Assembly: GCA_002473085.1 (NCBI GenBank) | Contig: DKTP01000018.1 | Span: 1 to 30,303, forward strand | Direction of reading: 5' to 3' | Source of the DNA: Anaerolineales bacterium UBA7227 | Lineage (GTDB): Bacteria > Chloroflexota > Anaerolineae > Anaerolineales > Villigracilaceae | Length of the DNA: 30,303 nt | Shown: piece after piece, positions 5,184 through 30,303 of the stretch | Numbering within the stretch: position 1 is the first letter of the stretch | How the letters are laid out: the number at the start of each line of letters is the position of its first letter | Program-made: the position numbers and the translations under genes | The notes under the pieces: model-generated | What the model was told of the DNA's origin: nothing | Seen by the model: the letters and a program-made list of their open reading frames with translations, nothing else | Databases searched by the model: none

Positions 5184-5921
5184 TCATTCAATGTTTGGAG
5201 TTTCATCGGAATTTATTTTGTAGATGCCGCCCGGCTCGGCAATTTTTCGCGAACCATCGGGGGATGGAGGAAAAACGATCTTATCAACCAAAAATTTCCC
5301 GATTGTGTCGTAATCCAGCATGTATTTTGGAGGGCGCGGCTTGCCGTTACTATTTCGTCCCTGGTGATGAATGCCAAGAGCAGATCTGTTTTTTGAGGTC
5401 ACAACCAGAAATAATATTTCGACAAGTTCCGCCTTCGTTTTTCTGTAACGCGATACGCTGGTTCTTTGTTCGCGATCAATTTCGTATTTTGATTTGCCTC
5501 CTTTTAATTTTCCGTGCCATTTTTGAAACGACCTGTTCATATCGTTGTATTCGACATCGCACAGGGCGATAACAAGTCCGTGCGCGCCATACTGTTTGAT
5601 GCTCCAATCCATTGCTTCCGAGTCGTTTAGAATTGACCGGTGATCATCTGATTTTAGAGCCTTGGCTTTCAAATCCCAATTGATTGTCCCTTTGAAGTCG
5701 AAACATGCTGTTTTGACTCTTCCAAATTTGTCGCCAGGAATTAAAAACGATCCTGCCAATTTCTCAAACGCGATGTACTCAAAATAGAACCCCCACCACT
5801 CCATTTGCCGCCAATTGAAATTTGCCGCTTTTAGTTCCAATACACTTTTTCGCCCGTCCCAAAAGACAGGAAAGTCATTCAGCAGGTTCTTTGCCAATAG
5901 AATATCACGTTTCACCGTCAT
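5184..5921 (-). CDS. Probable type II restriction endonuclease (PD-(D/E)XK-like)
   Basis: A protein of 245 residues. It follows the SPPY methyltransferase after 9 bp, and its Shine-Dalgarno (AAGGAGA) overlaps the methyltransferase stop, the usual layout of a type II pair. A plausible nuclease core is visible: E48 in WWGFYFEYI, then D75 in CFDFKG, then D83-L84-K85 in NWDLKAKA, matching the E...D...(D/E)XK arrangement. The tail is basic and polar. I do not recognise the exact family or the recognition site. Base composition is clearly more AT-rich than the host genes on either side, which suggests transfer together with the methyltransferase. A frameshift is not apparent. The REase role is inferred mainly from position plus the DxK motif. 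Confidence 0.75.
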   Translation of the reverse strand: MTVKRDILLAKNLLNDFPVFWDGRKSVLELKAANFNWRQMEWWGFYFEYIAFEKLAGSFLIPGDKFGRVKTACFDFKGTINWDLKAKALKSDDHRSILNDSEAMDWSIKQYGAHGLVIALCDVEYNDMNRSFQKWHGKLKGGKSKYEIDREQRTSVSRYRKTKAELVEILFLVVTSKNRSALGIHHQGRNSNGKPRPPKYMLDYDTIGKFLVDKIVFPPSPDGSRKIAEPGGIYKINSDETPNIE

Positions 5922-5930
5922 GTCATCTCC

Positions 5931-6830
5931 TTAAAACAACTTTTGCTGGGATCGAAACTCACTCTCGATCCGCCTGCGCGCGATCTCACAATATTCGTTG
6001 CTAACCTCAATTCCGATATATTTGCGATCGTTGTTGTGCGCCATGACGCATGTTGTACCGCTACCGCACATGGGATCCAAAACAACATCGCCCGGTTCAG
6101 AAAAGCATAAGATCAGATCCTCGGCAAGTTTGTCTGGAAATGTAGCGGGATGTTGAAGCTTTAACCGATTGCCTTCCGTATTGCTCGTTGAATATTGCCA
6201 GACCGTCCCCCGACATTTCATCGGGTTTACTGCTTTTGGCTCGATCGTTTTGAAACCGCCGTTTGTCAGCCTATCCGTTCCCGAATAGATTTTACCTGCA
6301 TGTTTACTAGGCACCATAAGGTGTTCTTTATGAAAAGTCTTGGGGCGATCTCCCTTGAAGAAAATCAAAATATATTCATGATCCACTCGAAAACGCTGAT
6401 TCCACCATGCGCCCGGGTTGCCATCACGTTTATATATCACGCTTTCAAAAAGTTTCCACCCGGCCTCGTCCACCCAATTGACAGCCAGTCGAAATGACGT
6501 GAGCGATTTTGCAAAGTTCTTTGTCCCATCGCCGATAACCACAATAGCCGCTCCGCCGTCCTTTGTGATCCTGTATAGATGTTTGCCGAGCTTTTCGAAA
6601 TCAAAAGACCAATTTTTTTTATAATCTCGAATTCCATCATAGGGCGGGGAAAAAACGATTAGATCTATGACATTATCAGGGAAAGTTGAAAGCAGTTCCA
6701 AACAATCGCCATTTAAAATTTGATCCAGGTTTAATTTGGCGGCCTGACTGCTGTTTTCACGAGCCGTATCCTGTAATTTTTTTTGTTTGATGGAATATGC
6801 AATTTGGGCTTGTTCTTTTACTTTTCTCAT
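5931..6830 (-). CDS. Beta-class DNA methyltransferase (probably N4-cytosine), type II R-M
   Basis: A protein of 299 residues. Motif IV is SPPY (61-64) in IDLIVFSPPYDG and comes before motif I, DPMCGSGTT (252-260), followed by IGIEVSNEYCEIARRRI; this order defines the beta class. SPPY rather than DPPY favours N4-cytosine methylation, although some N6-adenine enzymes carry similar motifs. The segment of about 130-235 between the two motifs should hold target recognition. The first 35 residues are basic and helical. It modifies the host DNA at the site cut by the nuclease encoded 9 bp downstream. There is no controller gene beside it. A TAAAAT box 6 nt from the ATG with no Shine-Dalgarno suggests a leaderless mRNA that starts within the 36-bp gap after the DUF1801 gene. 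Confidence 0.92.
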   Translation of the reverse strand: MRKVKEQAQIAYSIKQKKLQDTARENSSQAAKLNLDQILNGDCLELLSTFPDNVIDLIVFSPPYDGIRDYKKNWSFDFEKLGKHLYRITKDGGAAIVVIGDGTKNFAKSLTSFRLAVNWVDEAGWKLFESVIYKRDGNPGAWWNQRFRVDHEYILIFFKGDRPKTFHKEHLMVPSKHAGKIYSGTDRLTNGGFKTIEPKAVNPMKCRGTVWQYSTSNTEGNRLKLQHPATFPDKLAEDLILCFSEPGDVVLDPMCGSGTTCVMAHNNDRKYIGIEVSNEYCEIARRRIESEFRSQQKLF

Positions 6831-24791: not shown

Positions 24792-25250
24792 ATGAAGATA
24801 AAGTACCTTCGAGATGGAAGAGCTCCAATTCCTTTGAATGAGATTACTTCAAAGGTTATGAGCGTGAATAAGGCAAAAAACACTACACCAGAAATAAAAT
24901 TTCGAGAACTGCTTTCACAAGAGGGGATAAAAGGATATAAGCTGAATTGGAAAAAGGCAGCGGGTAAGCCTGACATAGCATTTACCAAGCAAAGAGTTGC
25001 GATTTTTATTAACGGGTGCTTTTGGCATCGATGTCCATATTGCAAACCAAGTCTTCCTAAAACACATAGGAACTTCTGGAAACAAAAATTTGCAAAAAAC
25101 AAAATTAGAGATAAAGAAAAAATTACAACTCTACGCAAAGATGGCTGGAAGGTATTGACAATTTGGGAATGTCAAATTAAAAAGCATCCTAATCAATCTG
25201 TTGTAAGGGTAAGGAAAGCGTTGTCTTCATACAGAGGAGTAGATGGCTGA
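24792..25250 (+). CDS. vsr: Very short patch repair endonuclease (Vsr)
   Basis: A protein of 152 residues. Vsr nicks DNA at T:G mismatches formed when 5-methylcytosine deaminates. The N-terminal pattern VMSVNKAKNTTPEIKFRELL is typical. The catalytic Asp is in GKPDIAF (D61), followed by INGCFWHRCPYC and GWKVLTIWEC. C76, C81, C84 and C127 are plausible zinc ligands; C127 sits at the spacing of C117 in the E. coli enzyme, while C81 replaces its zinc histidine. H79 lies in the GCFWH motif. The stop overlaps the start of the cytosine methyltransferase by 8 bp, the classical pairing. Codon use is AT-rich, unlike the host genes to the left. Confidence 0.95.
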   Translation: MKIKYLRDGRAPIPLNEITSKVMSVNKAKNTTPEIKFRELLSQEGIKGYKLNWKKAAGKPDIAFTKQRVAIFINGCFWHRCPYCKPSLPKTHRNFWKQKFAKNKIRDKEKITTLRKDGWKVLTIWECQIKKHPNQSVVRVRKALSSYRGVDG

Positions 25251-26955
25251 TTTCACGGTAATAGATTTCTTCTGTGGCGCTGGGGGTTTTTCAGAAGGAT
25301 TCAGACAGCAAGGTTTTGAAATAATTGCAGGCATTGATAGCTGGAAGCCTGCAATAGATACATTTAATTTTAATTTCGGATTAAATTGCAAACCGCGGAA
25401 TATATTAGAATTTGAATTTTCTATTAAAAAAATTGAAGAATTACCCGACACGCACATAATTATAGGAAGCCCGCCTTGTGTTAGCTTCTCATCTTCGAAT
25501 AAATCCGGCAAAGCAGATAAATCTTTAGGTTTAAAACTTACAAAAATCTTTTTACGAATCGTCGCGGTGAAAAAATATAAGCCGAAGTCTAAATTGAAAG
25601 CTTGGTTTATGGAAAATGTAACCAACTCCAAGGTTCATCTTCCTGCGGCGTATACTTTTGAACAGTTAGGTCTGAAAAGTTGGGCGCTGAAACATAACCA
25701 TGATCCTAAATCAATAGCTATTTCCCTTGACAATAATCGTTCGGCACTTAATTCTGCTGATTATGGAGCACCTCAATCACGAGTACGCATTTTCACAGGC
25801 GAAATTTTAAAAACAAAGGAACATATTGTTCCCGCTCATACTCACCAGCCTCCTAATCAAGATGGAGCATTACCAAGCTACAGGACGTTAGGACAGATTA
25901 GGGAAAATCTTCCAAGTCCCAATTTGGCGAAGCCAAAAGGATCCATGGTTGATCCTTTATATCCAAATATTGAAATCAAAGTTTCGGACCTAACCGATCA
26001 ATTTTATGACACTGGCTTATACGAAGTTGACTGGCAAGGCTCAAAGTTCTTAAAAACCAATCATCCTTATATGGGTTCTATGTTCTTCCCTGAATGTGAA
26101 GACCGTCCAAGCAGAACGATTACGGCCACTAAGATTGGAAATTCTAGAGAAGCAATAGTTCTTCTTTCTGAAGGCAATAGAAAAGGTGATGGTGAATACA
26201 GAACCCTCACCGTAAGAGAAGCCGCCACGTTGATGGGGTTTCCTATAACTTATCAATTCATTGGCTCTGAAGGAAGCAAATGGAAGTTGGTAGGAAATGC
26301 GGTGTGCCCGCCAATTAGCAACGCTTTTGCTAAAGAGGTTCGAAGAGAGTACGACTTAGGAAAGTTTATAGAGTATTTCCCTATGCAACCACTAAATGTC
26401 GTGCCCAACCTAAATACATTTAAAAGAAAAACATTCAACAATCCGCCTAAGAAGAAGCAAGGTTCGAGGTTTAGAAGGCACCCATTTAAAGATGGGAACT
26501 TGACTGTCACCTTATCAAATTATGACATTGAAAAAAACTCCAACAGCTCAATGAAATGGTATACCTCAATTCAATATGGCACAGGCATTAACTCGCTTGT
26601 TATGCAAAAATTTCCAGATGGCTATTTCAAGAAAATAGAAAAAATCATTGTTGGATTTGAAAATGGGCATAAGTTTATTGACATAATCAACAATGGATTT
26701 TCACACCAAGTAGCCGATGCAAAAACTTTGCAGATGATGTATGAAAACCAGCAAAACTATGAAAAATATCTCAACCCAATTAAATTGATCGATGTTGTTG
26801 GCGAGATCATTAATTCAATAGAAATAAGGTCGCCCATTTATGAGCAAAAAGGCAATCAACCTTTTAAGAAACACGCTATCCCCAAAAAGCAAGTTATGGC
26901 ATTGTACGCAATCAATAAAATCTGCTCGATAGCAAACGGAGGAGAGAATGAATAA
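25243..26955 (+). CDS. C5-cytosine DNA methyltransferase with extra C-terminal region
   Basis: A protein of 570 residues. Motif I is DFFCGAGGFSEGF (8-20). The catalytic loop is GSPPCVSFSS with C79. Motif VI is ENV (124-126) and motif VIII is APQSRVRIF with Q178, R180 and R182. The target-recognition region is about 190-315, then motifs IX-X (RTLTVREAATLMGFP and LVGNAVCPPIS). From about residue 370 there are some 190 more residues that ordinary Dcm-type enzymes lack; they contain polar beta-like segments (LTVTLSNYDI, MKWYTSIQYG) and no motif I recognise. Shine-Dalgarno AGAGGAG precedes the ATG. The stop overlaps the ParB-like gene by 8 bp. It should mark host DNA; the recognised sequence cannot be read. 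Confidence 0.93.
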   Translation: MADFTVIDFFCGAGGFSEGFRQQGFEIIAGIDSWKPAIDTFNFNFGLNCKPRNILEFEFSIKKIEELPDTHIIIGSPPCVSFSSSNKSGKADKSLGLKLTKIFLRIVAVKKYKPKSKLKAWFMENVTNSKVHLPAAYTFEQLGLKSWALKHNHDPKSIAISLDNNRSALNSADYGAPQSRVRIFTGEILKTKEHIVPAHTHQPPNQDGALPSYRTLGQIRENLPSPNLAKPKGSMVDPLYPNIEIKVSDLTDQFYDTGLYEVDWQGSKFLKTNHPYMGSMFFPECEDRPSRTITATKIGNSREAIVLLSEGNRKGDGEYRTLTVREAATLMGFPITYQFIGSEGSKWKLVGNAVCPPISNAFAKEVRREYDLGKFIEYFPMQPLNVVPNLNTFKRKTFNNPPKKKQGSRFRRHPFKDGNLTVTLSNYDIEKNSNSSMKWYTSIQYGTGINSLVMQKFPDGYFKKIEKIIVGFENGHKFIDIINNGFSHQVADAKTLQMMYENQQNYEKYLNPIKLIDVVGEIINSIEIRSPIYEQKGNQPFKKHAIPKKQVMALYAINKICSIANGGENE

Positions 26956-28309
26956 AGAACAGAGAATTGAATACTTCACAAAGCTATTAAAGAAAGCCCC
27001 TTATGGCTCCATGGAAGTTTTTTATAAGGGACATAAGCAGAAATTACCTGTTTACGAGATAGACCTTGATTACCTCATCTACAACCCATACAACGGCAGA
27101 ATTGCAAGCCGCGTTAAGTCCTATGAGAAACTTAACAAAGGTGAACGCCTCAATCCAGAAGATGCAGATGACGTGCAGATTATTGAGCAATTTCTGGACG
27201 ACTCGAGTAAACGTAGCAATGTAGACACCTTCAAGAGTCTGCGAGATCAGGGGCAACTAAAATATGGCATTGTAACAAAGGACGGGTACATAATTGACGG
27301 TAATAGGCGGGCAATGCTGTTAAGGAAAGTTGCAAACGAAAAGAAGGAAAAACCTGTATATTTTCTTGGGGTTGTTCTCGAAGAGGAGCTAGACGAGAAT
27401 CCAAAGGAAATCATGAGGCTTGAGACTACCTTTCAGATGGGGGAGGATGCAAAAGTAGACTACGACCCTATAGAAAAGTATCTAAAGTGCAAGGACTTAA
27501 TCCAATACTATCCAGGTGAAAAAGGTATTGAAGAAATCGCAAAAATGATGGGCGAAAAACCATCTACTATAAAAGAGTATCTATCAATTATGGAGCGTAT
27601 GGACGATTATTTAGATAAGCTAGGATACAGTGGTATTTACACCAGACTCAGCAAAACCGAAGGAGCCTTTGTTGATATCAACGGGTATTTAAACAGGTAT
27701 GAGTCTGGAAATTCAGGTAAGGTTAAGTGGAAGTACAAAAAAGCTGATACTGAAGAACTCAAATTGATTTATTATGACTATATTCAGTATATGTATAACA
27801 AAAAAAAGAAAAAGGATGACGAAGAAGATGGAGGAGTGTTTGGAGCAGGGGATTCCAAAGATTATCGAATTATCGGGAAAGCAAGTGAGAAAGAAAGTTT
27901 GTTTTGTGCTAACGAAAAAATCTGGAAAGAGTTCAGAGATAATCATTTTAAGAAAATCGATCCAATAAAAGATGAATTCGAGAACGGAAAATTCAGCATA
28001 GAACAGTTAAGAAAAGATAATGATGGAATGGACTTAAATGTTTTACTCAAAAGGCGAGATGAAGCATGGGCGGAAAGGGTTGGCCCAATCCTCAAAGAAA
28101 ACCTCGGGAAAGCCAAATATAATCTTGAGAACTTCAACAATCAGAACGCTCCTGAAGTTCTTTTAGAGAAGGCGCTTCGCGCACTTGAATCAATAGATAC
28201 CGAGACAAAATCGTTCCTCGAGAAACCAGAAGTAGAGCAGTTGGTTATGGAACTAAACAACAAAACCTGGAATTTCAAACAAATAATAAAAGACCACAAG
28301 AGAGGCTAA
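26948..28309 (+). CDS. ParB/Srx-fold protein with HTH, island component
   Basis: A protein of 453 residues. N-terminal ParB-like domain: a box I-like stretch NPYNGRIASR (46-55) and the phosphate-binding box GYIIDGNRRAMLLRKV (113-128). An HTH-like segment, GIEEIAKMMGEKPSTIKEYL, follows at 193-212, in the place where ParB proteins have theirs. The C-terminal 240 residues are charged and helical, with a Lys run and an acidic run near 285-297 (encoded partly by eight A at 27800-27807), and have no recognised domain. ParB-fold proteins bind nucleotide and DNA, and some are nucleases. No partner ParA is encoded, so plasmid partition is unlikely. Shine-Dalgarno GGAGGAG supports the start, which overlaps the methyltransferase. 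It probably works with the SNF2 protein 1 bp downstream. Confidence 0.82.
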   Translation: MNKEQRIEYFTKLLKKAPYGSMEVFYKGHKQKLPVYEIDLDYLIYNPYNGRIASRVKSYEKLNKGERLNPEDADDVQIIEQFLDDSSKRSNVDTFKSLRDQGQLKYGIVTKDGYIIDGNRRAMLLRKVANEKKEKPVYFLGVVLEEELDENPKEIMRLETTFQMGEDAKVDYDPIEKYLKCKDLIQYYPGEKGIEEIAKMMGEKPSTIKEYLSIMERMDDYLDKLGYSGIYTRLSKTEGAFVDINGYLNRYESGNSGKVKWKYKKADTEELKLIYYDYIQYMYNKKKKKDDEEDGGVFGAGDSKDYRIIGKASEKESLFCANEKIWKEFRDNHFKKIDPIKDEFENGKFSIEQLRKDNDGMDLNVLLKRRDEAWAERVGPILKENLGKAKYNLENFNNQNAPEVLLEKALRALESIDTETKSFLEKPEVEQLVMELNNKTWNFKQIIKDHKRG

Positions 28310-28310
28310 A

Positions 28311-30303
28311 GTGTCTTTTGTTGAACTGAACATTGATGAAGAAAAACGTCAATTCTTAATCCATGGTGATATTTCGCTGATTGTCAAGAATCGCCGCGCA
28401 AAATATTACTTTCTGGATGTCTTGCATGCCATAATAAATGACACATCGGTAGTAATTGACTATATCGAAGCGGATAAGGAATCTGTTTTACAAGACATTC
28501 AAAGCGCGTTGGAAGAATACAATATTGAGCAAAAAGATTCGGAGAGGATCAAGAATGTTCTGAGCGGTTACTTTGAAGAAAAGAGGAACTTCGAAATATT
28601 CGGTCAAAGGGCTAAGGATATTTGGAACAACAAAATATCCGCGACAGAATTTCAAGAATTTAAACAATCTATCGAAACTCACCTAAAAGGCAGAAGCTTA
28701 TATGATAAACAACTTCTTGCCTCCTTTCATCTAGCCTTCTCACAAAACGCATGCAACTTCTCTGTACCTGGAGCAGGGAAAACCACAACAGTTTATGCAG
28801 CATATTCGTATCTTAATAGCCTTTCGCCAGATCATCCCAAGTATGTCAATAAAATTCTGGTAATTGGTCCTTTGAGCTCATTTGGACCGTGGGAAGACGA
28901 GTTTTATCTATGTTTTGGAAAAAGACCCCACTCTGTGCGTTTATCAGGCGGGATGCCCAAAGAAGATAGAGACAGACATTTATTGTCTATCAAGCCAGTT
29001 GAAGAGACGCCAGAATTGACATTGATGTCATATCAAAGCGTTCCAAATAACATTTCTAGCCTCATATACTACTTGCAGCGTAACGGCAACAAAGTAATGG
29101 TGATATTAGATGAAGCGCATAGGATAAAGAACGTTGATGGTGGAGTGTGGGCGCAAGCAACTTTAGATGTTGCAAGGCATTGCAAATCTCGAGTCGTTCT
29201 TACTGGTACGCCACTTCCTAATGGCTATGAAGATATGTATAATTTATTTGAATTCATTTGGCCAGGTAAGGACGTAATTGGTTATTCTGTTTCGCAATTG
29301 AAAGATATGTCGAAAAACCGTTTTGACCCAAGAATCAACCAACTTATTGAAAATATTTCACCTTATTTTGTGCGGATTAGAAAAAGCCACTTAAACCTTC
29401 CTCCAGCTATAAATCACAAGCCGAATTTTATTGATATGGGAGAAACCCAGCGGGAAATTTATGACTTTATTGAAAAGAAATACCTTTCTTACTTTATTGG
29501 TAACGAAACAATATTGTCACTGTCCTCAGAACTTACAAAGGCAAGATTTATCCGTCTGATGCAAGCAGCAACAAATCCAAATCTGCTCAAAACTCCGCTT
29601 GAAGCTTATTTCAAGGAGCAAGGCTTAGGGGACGAGCTTCATATTGATGACACTGAAATAATCCAGAAAATTCTCAGGTTTACTGAATATGAAAAGGCAC
29701 CTCAAAAATTCGTTGTTATAAAAGACATTGTCAGTAAGCTACTCGCCCAAAATGAAAAAGTTGTTATATGGACTACCTTTATTCAAAATACAAAAGAACT
29801 CCAAGGTTACCTAAAAGATTTCGGGATAGAGTCTAGGCTTCTCATTGGAGAGGTTCCCGTAGAGCGAGATGATCTTTCAGCAGAAGGCATTTTGACGCGT
29901 GAAAAGATCATTAGGGAATTTCATGATCCGAATTCATCTTTTAAAGTCATTATTGCAAATCCTTTTGCTGTCTCTGAGTCTATTTCTCTGCACAAAGCTT
30001 GTCATCATGCGATTTACCTTGAGCGCACTTTCAATGCAACTCACTTTATTCAATCGAAAGATAGAATTCACAGAGTTGGCTTAGATCCAAAAACAGAAAC
30101 ACATTATTACTACATTCTTTCAAAGAACTCTATAGACGAGACTGTGCATCATCGATTGCAGGAAAAAGAACAACGCATGCTTGAAATCATTGAAAACGAA
30201 GAAATACCATTGTTCAGCGAAAACATGGACTATGAAATTGACCTCAACAATGACATTAAGGCGATAATCAGAGATTATGTTAGCAATACCTTCGCCAAAT
30301 TGA
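28311..30303 (+). CDS. SNF2-family ATPase/translocase, 3'-truncated by window edge
   Basis: The frame is open from the GTG at 28311 to the last base without a stop, giving 664 residues of an incomplete protein. GTG is chosen because AGAGG lies 5 bp upstream and it follows the ParB-like stop by one base. After an unassigned N-terminal region (1-130) come Walker A VPGAGKTTT (152-160), motif II LDEAH with RIKN (266-274), motif III LTGTPLPN (297-304), and motif VI DRIHRVG (584-590) with the probable arginine finger R588. DEAH followed by RIKN, and DRIHRVG, are typical of SNF2 rather than DEAD helicases. It should translocate on double-stranded DNA using ATP. No nuclease domain is seen before the edge. 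Composition is AT-rich. Confidence 0.9.
   Translation, partial: MSFVELNIDEEKRQFLIHGDISLIVKNRRAKYYFLDVLHAIINDTSVVIDYIEADKESVLQDIQSALEEYNIEQKDSERIKNVLSGYFEEKRNFEIFGQRAKDIWNNKISATEFQEFKQSIETHLKGRSLYDKQLLASFHLAFSQNACNFSVPGAGKTTTVYAAYSYLNSLSPDHPKYVNKILVIGPLSSFGPWEDEFYLCFGKRPHSVRLSGGMPKEDRDRHLLSIKPVEETPELTLMSYQSVPNNISSLIYYLQRNGNKVMVILDEAHRIKNVDGGVWAQATLDVARHCKSRVVLTGTPLPNGYEDMYNLFEFIWPGKDVIGYSVSQLKDMSKNRFDPRINQLIENISPYFVRIRKSHLNLPPAINHKPNFIDMGETQREIYDFIEKKYLSYFIGNETILSLSSELTKARFIRLMQAATNPNLLKTPLEAYFKEQGLGDELHIDDTEIIQKILRFTEYEKAPQKFVVIKDIVSKLLAQNEKVVIWTTFIQNTKELQGYLKDFGIESRLLIGEVPVERDDLSAEGILTREKIIREFHDPNSSFKVIIANPFAVSESISLHKACHHAIYLERTFNATHFIQSKDRIHRVGLDPKTETHYYYILSKNSIDETVHHRLQEKEQRMLEIIENEEIPLFSENMDYEIDLNNDIKAIIRDYVSNTFAKL

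What the first reader, a model, noticed from the sequence alone, without database searches (positions are those of the whole stretch)
24792..30303. Candidate undescribed defence/modification operon: vsr - C5 MTase - ParB-like - SNF2 ATPase
Four genes are packed as one transcript (8-bp overlap, 8-bp overlap, 1-bp gap) in AT-rich DNA inside a GC-rich genome. A cytosine methyltransferase with Vsr is a known pair, and methyltransferases occur with Z1, MORC and DUF4420 genes in mza-like systems and with helicases in DISARM; ParB-like and SNF2 genes occur in dpd clusters. This exact combination is not one I can name. A model: the methyltransferase marks self DNA, the ParB-fold protein reads DNA or signals with nucleotide, and the SNF2 motor acts on unmarked DNA. 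No cutting domain is seen, so the effector may be the ParB domain or a gene past the right edge.
Basis: partly seen in the sequence, partly recalled or inferred. Interest (0 to 1): 0.85.

Follow-up and report, generated by a model that had tools for sequence, protein, structure and literature searches.

The report
Motor-driven restriction operon with ParB-like protein
This looks like a bacterial restriction-modification operon that couples a DNA-marking enzyme to a DNA motor, a ParB-like protein and a nuclease; related operons occur in many phyla, we found no name for the combination, and in this genome a jumping element appears to have broken it.

Summary
In detail: Vsr, a C5 cytosine methyltransferase (MTase), a ParB-like protein and an SNF2 ATPase are packed in an AT-rich islet that ends with the contig. 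The missing cutter is past the edge. In 70 of 77 genome loci with the ParB-SNF2 pair, the next gene encodes a NOV_C/DUF3883 protein, predicted as winged-helix parts plus a PD-(D/E)XK nuclease. This genome has that gene at the end of another contig. Both contigs stop 20 bp inside one insertion sequence and share a 5-bp target repeat, so the local nuclease gene is cut from its start codon. A C5 MTase lies near the ParB-like gene in 75 of 79 loci; the 4 misses are near contig ends. Best reading: an ATP-dependent restriction-modification system that works like CglI/NgoAVII but has different parts (SNF2 motor, NOV_C nuclease, KorB/ParB-fold protein). The ParB-SNF2 pair also travels with DpnII-like, Sau3AI- and BglII-type enzymes and, on lactobacillus and Lactococcus plasmids, with type III Mod-Res, so it looks portable. 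Nothing listed or read in nine literature searches named it. New variant of a known kind; mechanism inferred, untested.

The parts
24792..25250 (+). Vsr: very-short-patch-repair type nicking endonuclease (152 aa)
   Evidence: ORF; PF03852 67.7 bits, E 8.2e-19; PADLOC Vsr 68.7 bits; PDI, CFWH and WEC strings present
25243..26955 (+). C5 cytosine DNA methyltransferase (570 aa)
   Evidence: PF00145 141.5 bits; TIGR00675 105.9 bits over cut-off 100.65; FCGAGGF, SPPC, ENV, QSRVR, GNAV present
26368..26952 (+). conserved C-terminal extension of the MTase (195 aa), no known family
   Evidence: alignment A4 of 17 sequences, the other 16 being 25-53% identical to the window; no detectable relation to the DpnII-like enzymes by profile comparison (probability 0.2%)
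26948..28309 (+). ParB-like protein (453 aa): KorB/Noc/ParB-type domain (about 30-168), helix-turn-helix domain (about 169-260), long helical C-terminus
28311..30283 (+). SNF2-family ATPase, native part; only the last few codons are lost
   Evidence: PF00176 81.9 bits, PF00271 25.5 bits; GAGKT, DEAH, TGTP, QSKDRIHR present; most of the closest homologues are 662-664 aa
30277..30283 (+). first 7 bases, with the start codon, of the NOV_C (DUF3883) nuclease gene, overlapping the SNF2 3' end; the rest is on contig C72 (L101:10460-11459, minus strand)
   Evidence: inferred from contig ends and from P0241, a 333-aa protein that begins MLEELL and whose other 332 residues equal the C72 frame
30279..30283 (.). 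5-bp target-site duplication of the insertion sequence
   Evidence: same 5 bases border the insertion sequence on C144 and on C72
30284..30303 (.). one end (20 bp) of an insertion sequence; the contig breaks inside it
   Evidence: six contig ends of this genome stop 18-20 bp into the same imperfect inverted repeats

Best explanation
The cluster is a restriction-modification operon of an ATP-dependent kind. The C5 MTase marks the host's copies of a short site; Vsr repairs T:G mismatches that arise when 5-methylcytosine deaminates (recalled role of the family). The restriction side is a three-gene module: the NOV_C protein (winged-helix parts plus PD-(D/E)XK nuclease) cuts, the SNF2 protein is the ATP-driven double-stranded DNA motor that powers or licenses cutting, and the ParB-like protein is a nucleotide-switched DNA-binding or clamp subunit that loads or holds the motor at unmethylated sites. 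Shown here: gene content, linkage, folds by prediction, intact motifs, and strong signs that the local copy is broken. Inferred: that the module restricts unmethylated DNA, that ATP (and perhaps CTP) is needed, and which subunit reads the site. In this genome an insertion sequence separates the nuclease gene from its start codon, so here the operon probably modifies but does not restrict.
Confidence: 0.62

Rival explanations
1. Accessory reading: ParB-like and SNF2 (with or without NOV_C) do not form the primary restriction enzyme but a portable helper that serves many R-M systems, for example by clearing bound proteins from invading DNA, carrying on degradation after the first cut, or silencing restriction during establishment.
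For: The pair occurs with restriction enzymes of other families: DpnII/BanI-like in 34 and Sau3AI-type in 8 of 79 genome loci; type III Mod plus Res on plasmids L114, L115 and L122, where the L114 SNF2 is 32% identical over 541 aligned positions to the window's.
Against: 35 of 79 genome loci have no other recognised type II enzyme; NOV_C with conserved active-site residues is nearly always next to SNF2; the DpnII-linked group is one side of a single well-supported branch on the SNF2 tree, so it may be one later addition.
Confidence: 0.27
2. The ParB-fold protein is itself the effector, a nuclease or nucleotide-depleting enzyme, as the first reader allowed and as has been proposed for other ParB/Srx proteins in conflict systems.
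For: ParB/Srx domains with nuclease or NTPase activity are reported (PMC5512222, PMC10853773, PMC12839542; passages only).
Against: Best structural matches are KorB, Noc and chromosomal ParB, several covering the DNA-binding domain too, and a dedicated nuclease is encoded next door.
Confidence: 0.05
3. Chance neighbours in a defence island: an orphan Vsr-MTase pair beside an unrelated ParB-SNF2-nuclease unit.
For: Defence-type genes lie nearby: an N6/N4 MTase at 5934-6830 and an AbiEii-like gene near NOV_C on C72.
Against: MTase linkage in 75 of 79 genome loci across many phyla with none in the outer flanks, compact overlapping genes and correlated divergence of the parts.
Confidence: 0.03

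Closest known systems
CglI / NgoAVII / BceSIV ATP-dependent R-M systems
   Same: C5 MTase plus separate nuclease and SF2 ATPase genes; nuclease with its own DNA-recognition domain (PMC4267653, abstract and passages)
Type II R-M with C5 MTase and Vsr
   Same: C5 MTase with adjacent Vsr; related loci carry DpnII/BanI-like, Sau3AI or BglII enzymes
   Different: An ATP motor and a ParB-like subunit are not part of ordinary type II systems (recalled); the window type shows no stand-alone type II enzyme
SNF2-DUF3883 helicase-nucleases (Ava_2192 neighbourhoods, PMC3710099; BREX-related type 1 helicases with C-terminal PD-(D/E)XK, PMC12839542; passages only)
   Same: SNF2 motor coupled to a REase-fold domain; in PMC3710099 that domain is DUF3883
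   Different: Here they are separate overlapping genes with a C5 MTase and a ParB-like protein; the operon proteins match none of the DUF499 or PglZ families that mark those systems
Zorya ZorD, DISARM DrmD, Dpd DpdE
   Same: SNF2-type ATPases of defence systems; ZorD models give the best PADLOC scores, 86.2 bits
   Different: Far below NCBIfam cut-offs: ZorD 51.5 of 1500, DrmD 38.6 of 610, DpdE 22.6 of 500
KorB / Noc / ParB proteins (CTP-dependent DNA clamps, recalled)
   Same: Predicted fold over the nucleotide-binding and helix-turn-helix domains
   Different: In these loci it sits with an R-M core and an SNF2 motor; the family has a longer stretch between the LETT and PIEKY motifs

Membership tests
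CglI/NgoAVII class | C5 MTase gene in the operon | tested here: met
   PF00145 141.5 bits
CglI/NgoAVII class | R protein with PLD nuclease and B3 DNA-binding domains | tested here: not met
   The nuclease protein of four related loci matches NOV_C and no PLD or B3 model at E up to 0.1
CglI/NgoAVII class | ATP-dependent cleavage of unmethylated sites | not testable with these tools
   Needs biochemistry
Type II R-M | MTase plus a recognised type II restriction enzyme | tested here: inconclusive
   None recognised among the four window genes or the three C72 neighbours scanned; an unknown enzyme family cannot be excluded; met in relatives with DpnII-like, Sau3AI or BglII genes
DISARM | DrmD-type SNF2 helicase together with DrmA, DrmB, DrmC | tested here: not met
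   SNF2 is 38.6 bits against DrmD cut-off 610; best DrmA score of the SNF2 is 17.1 bits, and no DrmB or DrmC row appears for the operon proteins (the MTase table shows 25 of 49 families). Genes beyond the operon were scanned only in part
Dpd | DpdE SNF2 helicase | tested here: not met
   DpdE 22.6 of 500 bits
Zorya | ZorD with ZorA/ZorB motor | tested here: not met
   ZorD 51.5 of 1500 bits; no ZorA or ZorB row for the operon proteins shown
NOV_C / DUF3883 family | PF13020 match with PD-(D/E)XK residues | tested here: met
   4 of 4 relatives over the cut-off; precomputed PF13020 on P0241; residues in 77 of 78
ParB/Noc/KorB proteins | Nucleotide-binding ParB domain followed by helix-turn-helix domain | tested here: met
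ParB/Noc/KorB proteins | CTP binding and clamp closing on DNA | not testable with these tools
   Motif register only, not significant by score

The most novel reading that the evidence does not exclude
The ParB-SNF2 pair is a general, mobile restriction engine: a CTP-switched DNA clamp that loads at unmethylated sites and hands DNA to an SNF2 motor, which then drives whichever endonuclease the operon supplies (NOV_C, DpnII-like, Sau3AI, BglII or type III Res). To our knowledge that would be the first restriction systems to use a ParB-type CTP clamp for self/non-self discrimination, and one module shared by type II and type III R-M.
Probability: 0.22. Interest if true: 0.87.

Novelty: new variant of a known kind. 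Interest (0 to 1): 0.64.

Why it matters
ATP-dependent restriction outside types I and III is known from few examples (recalled; CglI/NgoAVII are presented as prototypes of a distinct class in PMC4267653, passage). A conserved unit in many phyla that couples a C5 MTase to an SNF2 motor, a NOV_C nuclease and a ParB-fold protein, and a ParB-SNF2 pair that also rides with type III systems, would give restriction a new modular architecture and a specific, testable role for a ParB-type nucleotide switch in immunity. It may also explain some C5 MTases that look like orphans because their cutter is not recognised. The ParB-like protein has no PADLOC-DB 2.0.0 match above 18 bits, so scans with that set would miss the pair.

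Tried and rejected
Rejected: ParB as the cutter (see rivals). Rejected: DISARM, Dpd or Zorya membership (scores far below cut-offs). Rejected: that the MTase C-terminal extension is a disguised DpnII-like enzyme (hhalign probability 0.2%). Tried without result: profile search of solved structures for the ParB-like and NOV_C families (best E 0.0065 and 0.029, to a designed protein and a phage collar protein); a partial-correlation test of which subunit co-varies with the MTase recognition region (inconclusive); Foldseek alone on NOV_C (nothing under E 0.001); a degenerate Walker-type DNA pattern in the window (0 matches). Literature: nine searches; no listed title, abstract start or passage read named the ParB-SNF2-DUF3883 combination, but several lists were capped (one search showed 20 of 432), subscription papers and preprints are mostly not held, and REBASE could not be searched. 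A SpyI-type prophage R-M (PMC4260502, passages), the ParB-methylase BCE_0392 (PMC3459991, passages) and a plasmid DUF3883 listing (PMC6098607, passages) proved to be other arrangements.

Sampling: 62 loci with all four proteins in the accepted length ranges were used and the others dropped; 5 of the 62 (BglII and Sau3AI types) entered only the all-loci run. The SNF2 tree used 75 rows, genome loci and the window, with viral loci and broken or cut SNF2 genes left out; it is the quick method and several long branches are unsure. I opened 13 plasmid regions of 70 matching records and 1 phage region of 5; many of the other plasmids are similar Enterococcus records, and the plasmid gene table is incomplete. 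In 400 genomes of the window's own phylum 4 had a match to the ParB-like family, only the window's strong and the other three weak (E 1.6e-27 to 2.9e-8, contexts not opened), so it is rare there. The PADLOC scan of eight neighbouring proteins was added when I checked the report.

Full report
What is there. The window is one whole contig, G000:C144. At its right end four + strand genes are packed with two 8-bp overlaps and a 1-bp gap: Vsr, a C5 cytosine MTase with a conserved 195-aa C-terminal extension, a ParB-like protein and an SNF2 ATPase. Pfam supports the first two and the last strongly. GC is 0.380 in the operon and 0.615 left of it. The motifs looked for in Vsr, MTase and SNF2 are present.

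Related loci. An exact-peptide scan of GTDB species genomes with an alignment of the ParB-like family gave 79 loci, and of viral contigs 13; some genome and viral loci are the same DNA. Rescanning them with profiles built from the neighbouring genes: SNF2 directly follows the ParB-like gene in 77 of 79 genome loci (of the two misses, one ends at the contig end and one has a short ParB-like frame) and in 11 of 13 viral loci (both misses at contig ends). The next gene after SNF2 is a NOV_C protein in 70 of 77 and 10 of 11. The seven genome exceptions are L017 (contig edge), L046, L052 and L054 (a Sau3AI-type gene near instead), L079 and L082 (an HNH gene next), and L051 (SNF2 gene in pieces, NOV_C after them); the viral one is L092. 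A C5 MTase lies within 6.5 kb in 75 of 79 and 11 of 13; the four genome misses each have a contig end within 1.4 kb on one side. No C5 MTase of this kind lies in 368,626 bp of outer flanks, against 86 in the inner 1,107,488 bp, genome and viral loci together. Vsr lies near in 23 of 79 and 4 of 13. Restriction enzyme families near the pair in the 79 genome loci: none recognised 32, HNH only 3, DpnII/BanI-like 34 (two with HNH), Sau3AI-type 8, BglII-type 4; two loci hold both of the last two, with HNH. 'None recognised' does not exclude an unknown family. Hosts include Bacillota, Bacteroidota, Pseudomonadota, Chloroflexota, Omnitrophota, Verrucomicrobiota, Mycoplasmatota and candidate phyla. In the window's own phylum the family is rare: 4 of 400 genomes have a match, the window's and three weak ones.

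The local copy is broken. This genome encodes a NOV_C protein at the very end of contig C72 (E 1.9e-82 to the Omnitrophota one). C144 and C72 both stop 20 bp inside imperfect inverted repeats of one element. Six contig ends of the genome stop 18-20 bp into these repeats, four in one end form and two in the other. Of the eight ways to pair them, two share the bordering bases: C144 with C72 (5 bases, GTTAG) and C135 with C64 (6 bases); the other six share none at 3 or more. That is a target-site duplication of about 5 bp. The window's SNF2 tail departs from its homologues exactly at that point. P0241, a 333-aa protein with a normal start, has its other 332 residues equal to the C72 frame; it stands for a cluster of 6 sequences on 16 contigs. 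So intact copies exist. The element's body was not found, and nothing held spans the junction, so the adjacency of C144 and C72 is a strong inference, not an observation.

A portable pair. ParB-like relatives at 20-38% identity over part of the protein occur on plasmids (66 records at E 1e-5; 70 at 0.1). In all 13 plasmid regions opened, the next gene is annotated as SNF2-related or DEAD/DEAH helicase (in one search the ParB-like gene is split in two). Partners: type III Mod and Res in three and Mod with an IS30 transposase in one; a C5 MTase with a Sau3AI/MutH enzyme or with Vsr and a MutH-like protein; a DUF3883 protein without a listed MTase; the other six show no MTase in the stretch opened, one of them an HsdR gene. 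Homology of the SNF2 protein to the window's was checked for two of the 13: 32% over 541 positions and 31% over 553. Streptococcus phage Javan191 carries a ParB-SNF2-unknown-C5 MTase array.

Evolution. On a quick SNF2 tree of 75 rows the DpnII-like class is one side of a branch with support 100, and the extended-MTase classes need 3 and 4 changes. The window groups with Omnitrophota and Bacteroidota loci of the same type (support 99). Divergence of the parts follows that of the MTase recognition region, but whether any part follows it beyond shared ancestry is unresolved: the DpnII class shows it for five of six parts, the extended class hardly, the pooled set not.

Verdict. Real, conserved and, as far as searched, unnamed; a new variant of ATP-dependent restriction-modification, with a broken copy in this genome. 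What is new is the combination and the portable ParB-SNF2 pair, not the individual domains.

Noticed in passing
window 5184-6830, minus strand: A second AT-rich islet (GC 0.44) with an N6/N4 DNA MTase (PF01555 138 bits) next to a 245-aa protein with no Pfam match and a weak PADLOC REase_II score (21.6 bits): looks like another R-M pair.
   Followed up: partly
L101:7866-8835 (contig C72, near the NOV_C gene): An AbiEii-like nucleotidyltransferase (PF08843 28.6 bits; PADLOC AbiEii 38.5 bits) with a small unmatched upstream gene: a toxin-antitoxin type neighbour.
   Followed up: partly
contig ends C64, C72, C91, C135, C144, C176 of G000: A multi-copy insertion sequence with imperfect inverted repeats and about 5-bp target duplications fragments this assembly; its body and family were not found.
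   Followed up: partly
L008:14271-15530 and L039:6384-7655: Second ParB-like copies beside the operon, after NOV_C and divergent from Vsr respectively; role unknown.
   Followed up: no
L112, L116, L119, L124 (Enterococcus plasmids): The ParB-SNF2 pair follows a protein of about 860 aa and no MTase is listed near; of two such proteins scanned, one has a sigma-70 region 4 match and one none: a possible different partner.
   Followed up: partly
window 26368-26952 and relatives (alignment A4): The MTase C-terminal extension is conserved, of unknown fold, and absent from the short MTases that have a DpnII/BanI-like gene instead.
   Followed up: partly
L053:13198-14694: NOV_C protein of 498 aa with a long C-terminal addition not seen in most relatives; also longer in L069, L072 and L075.
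   Followed up: no
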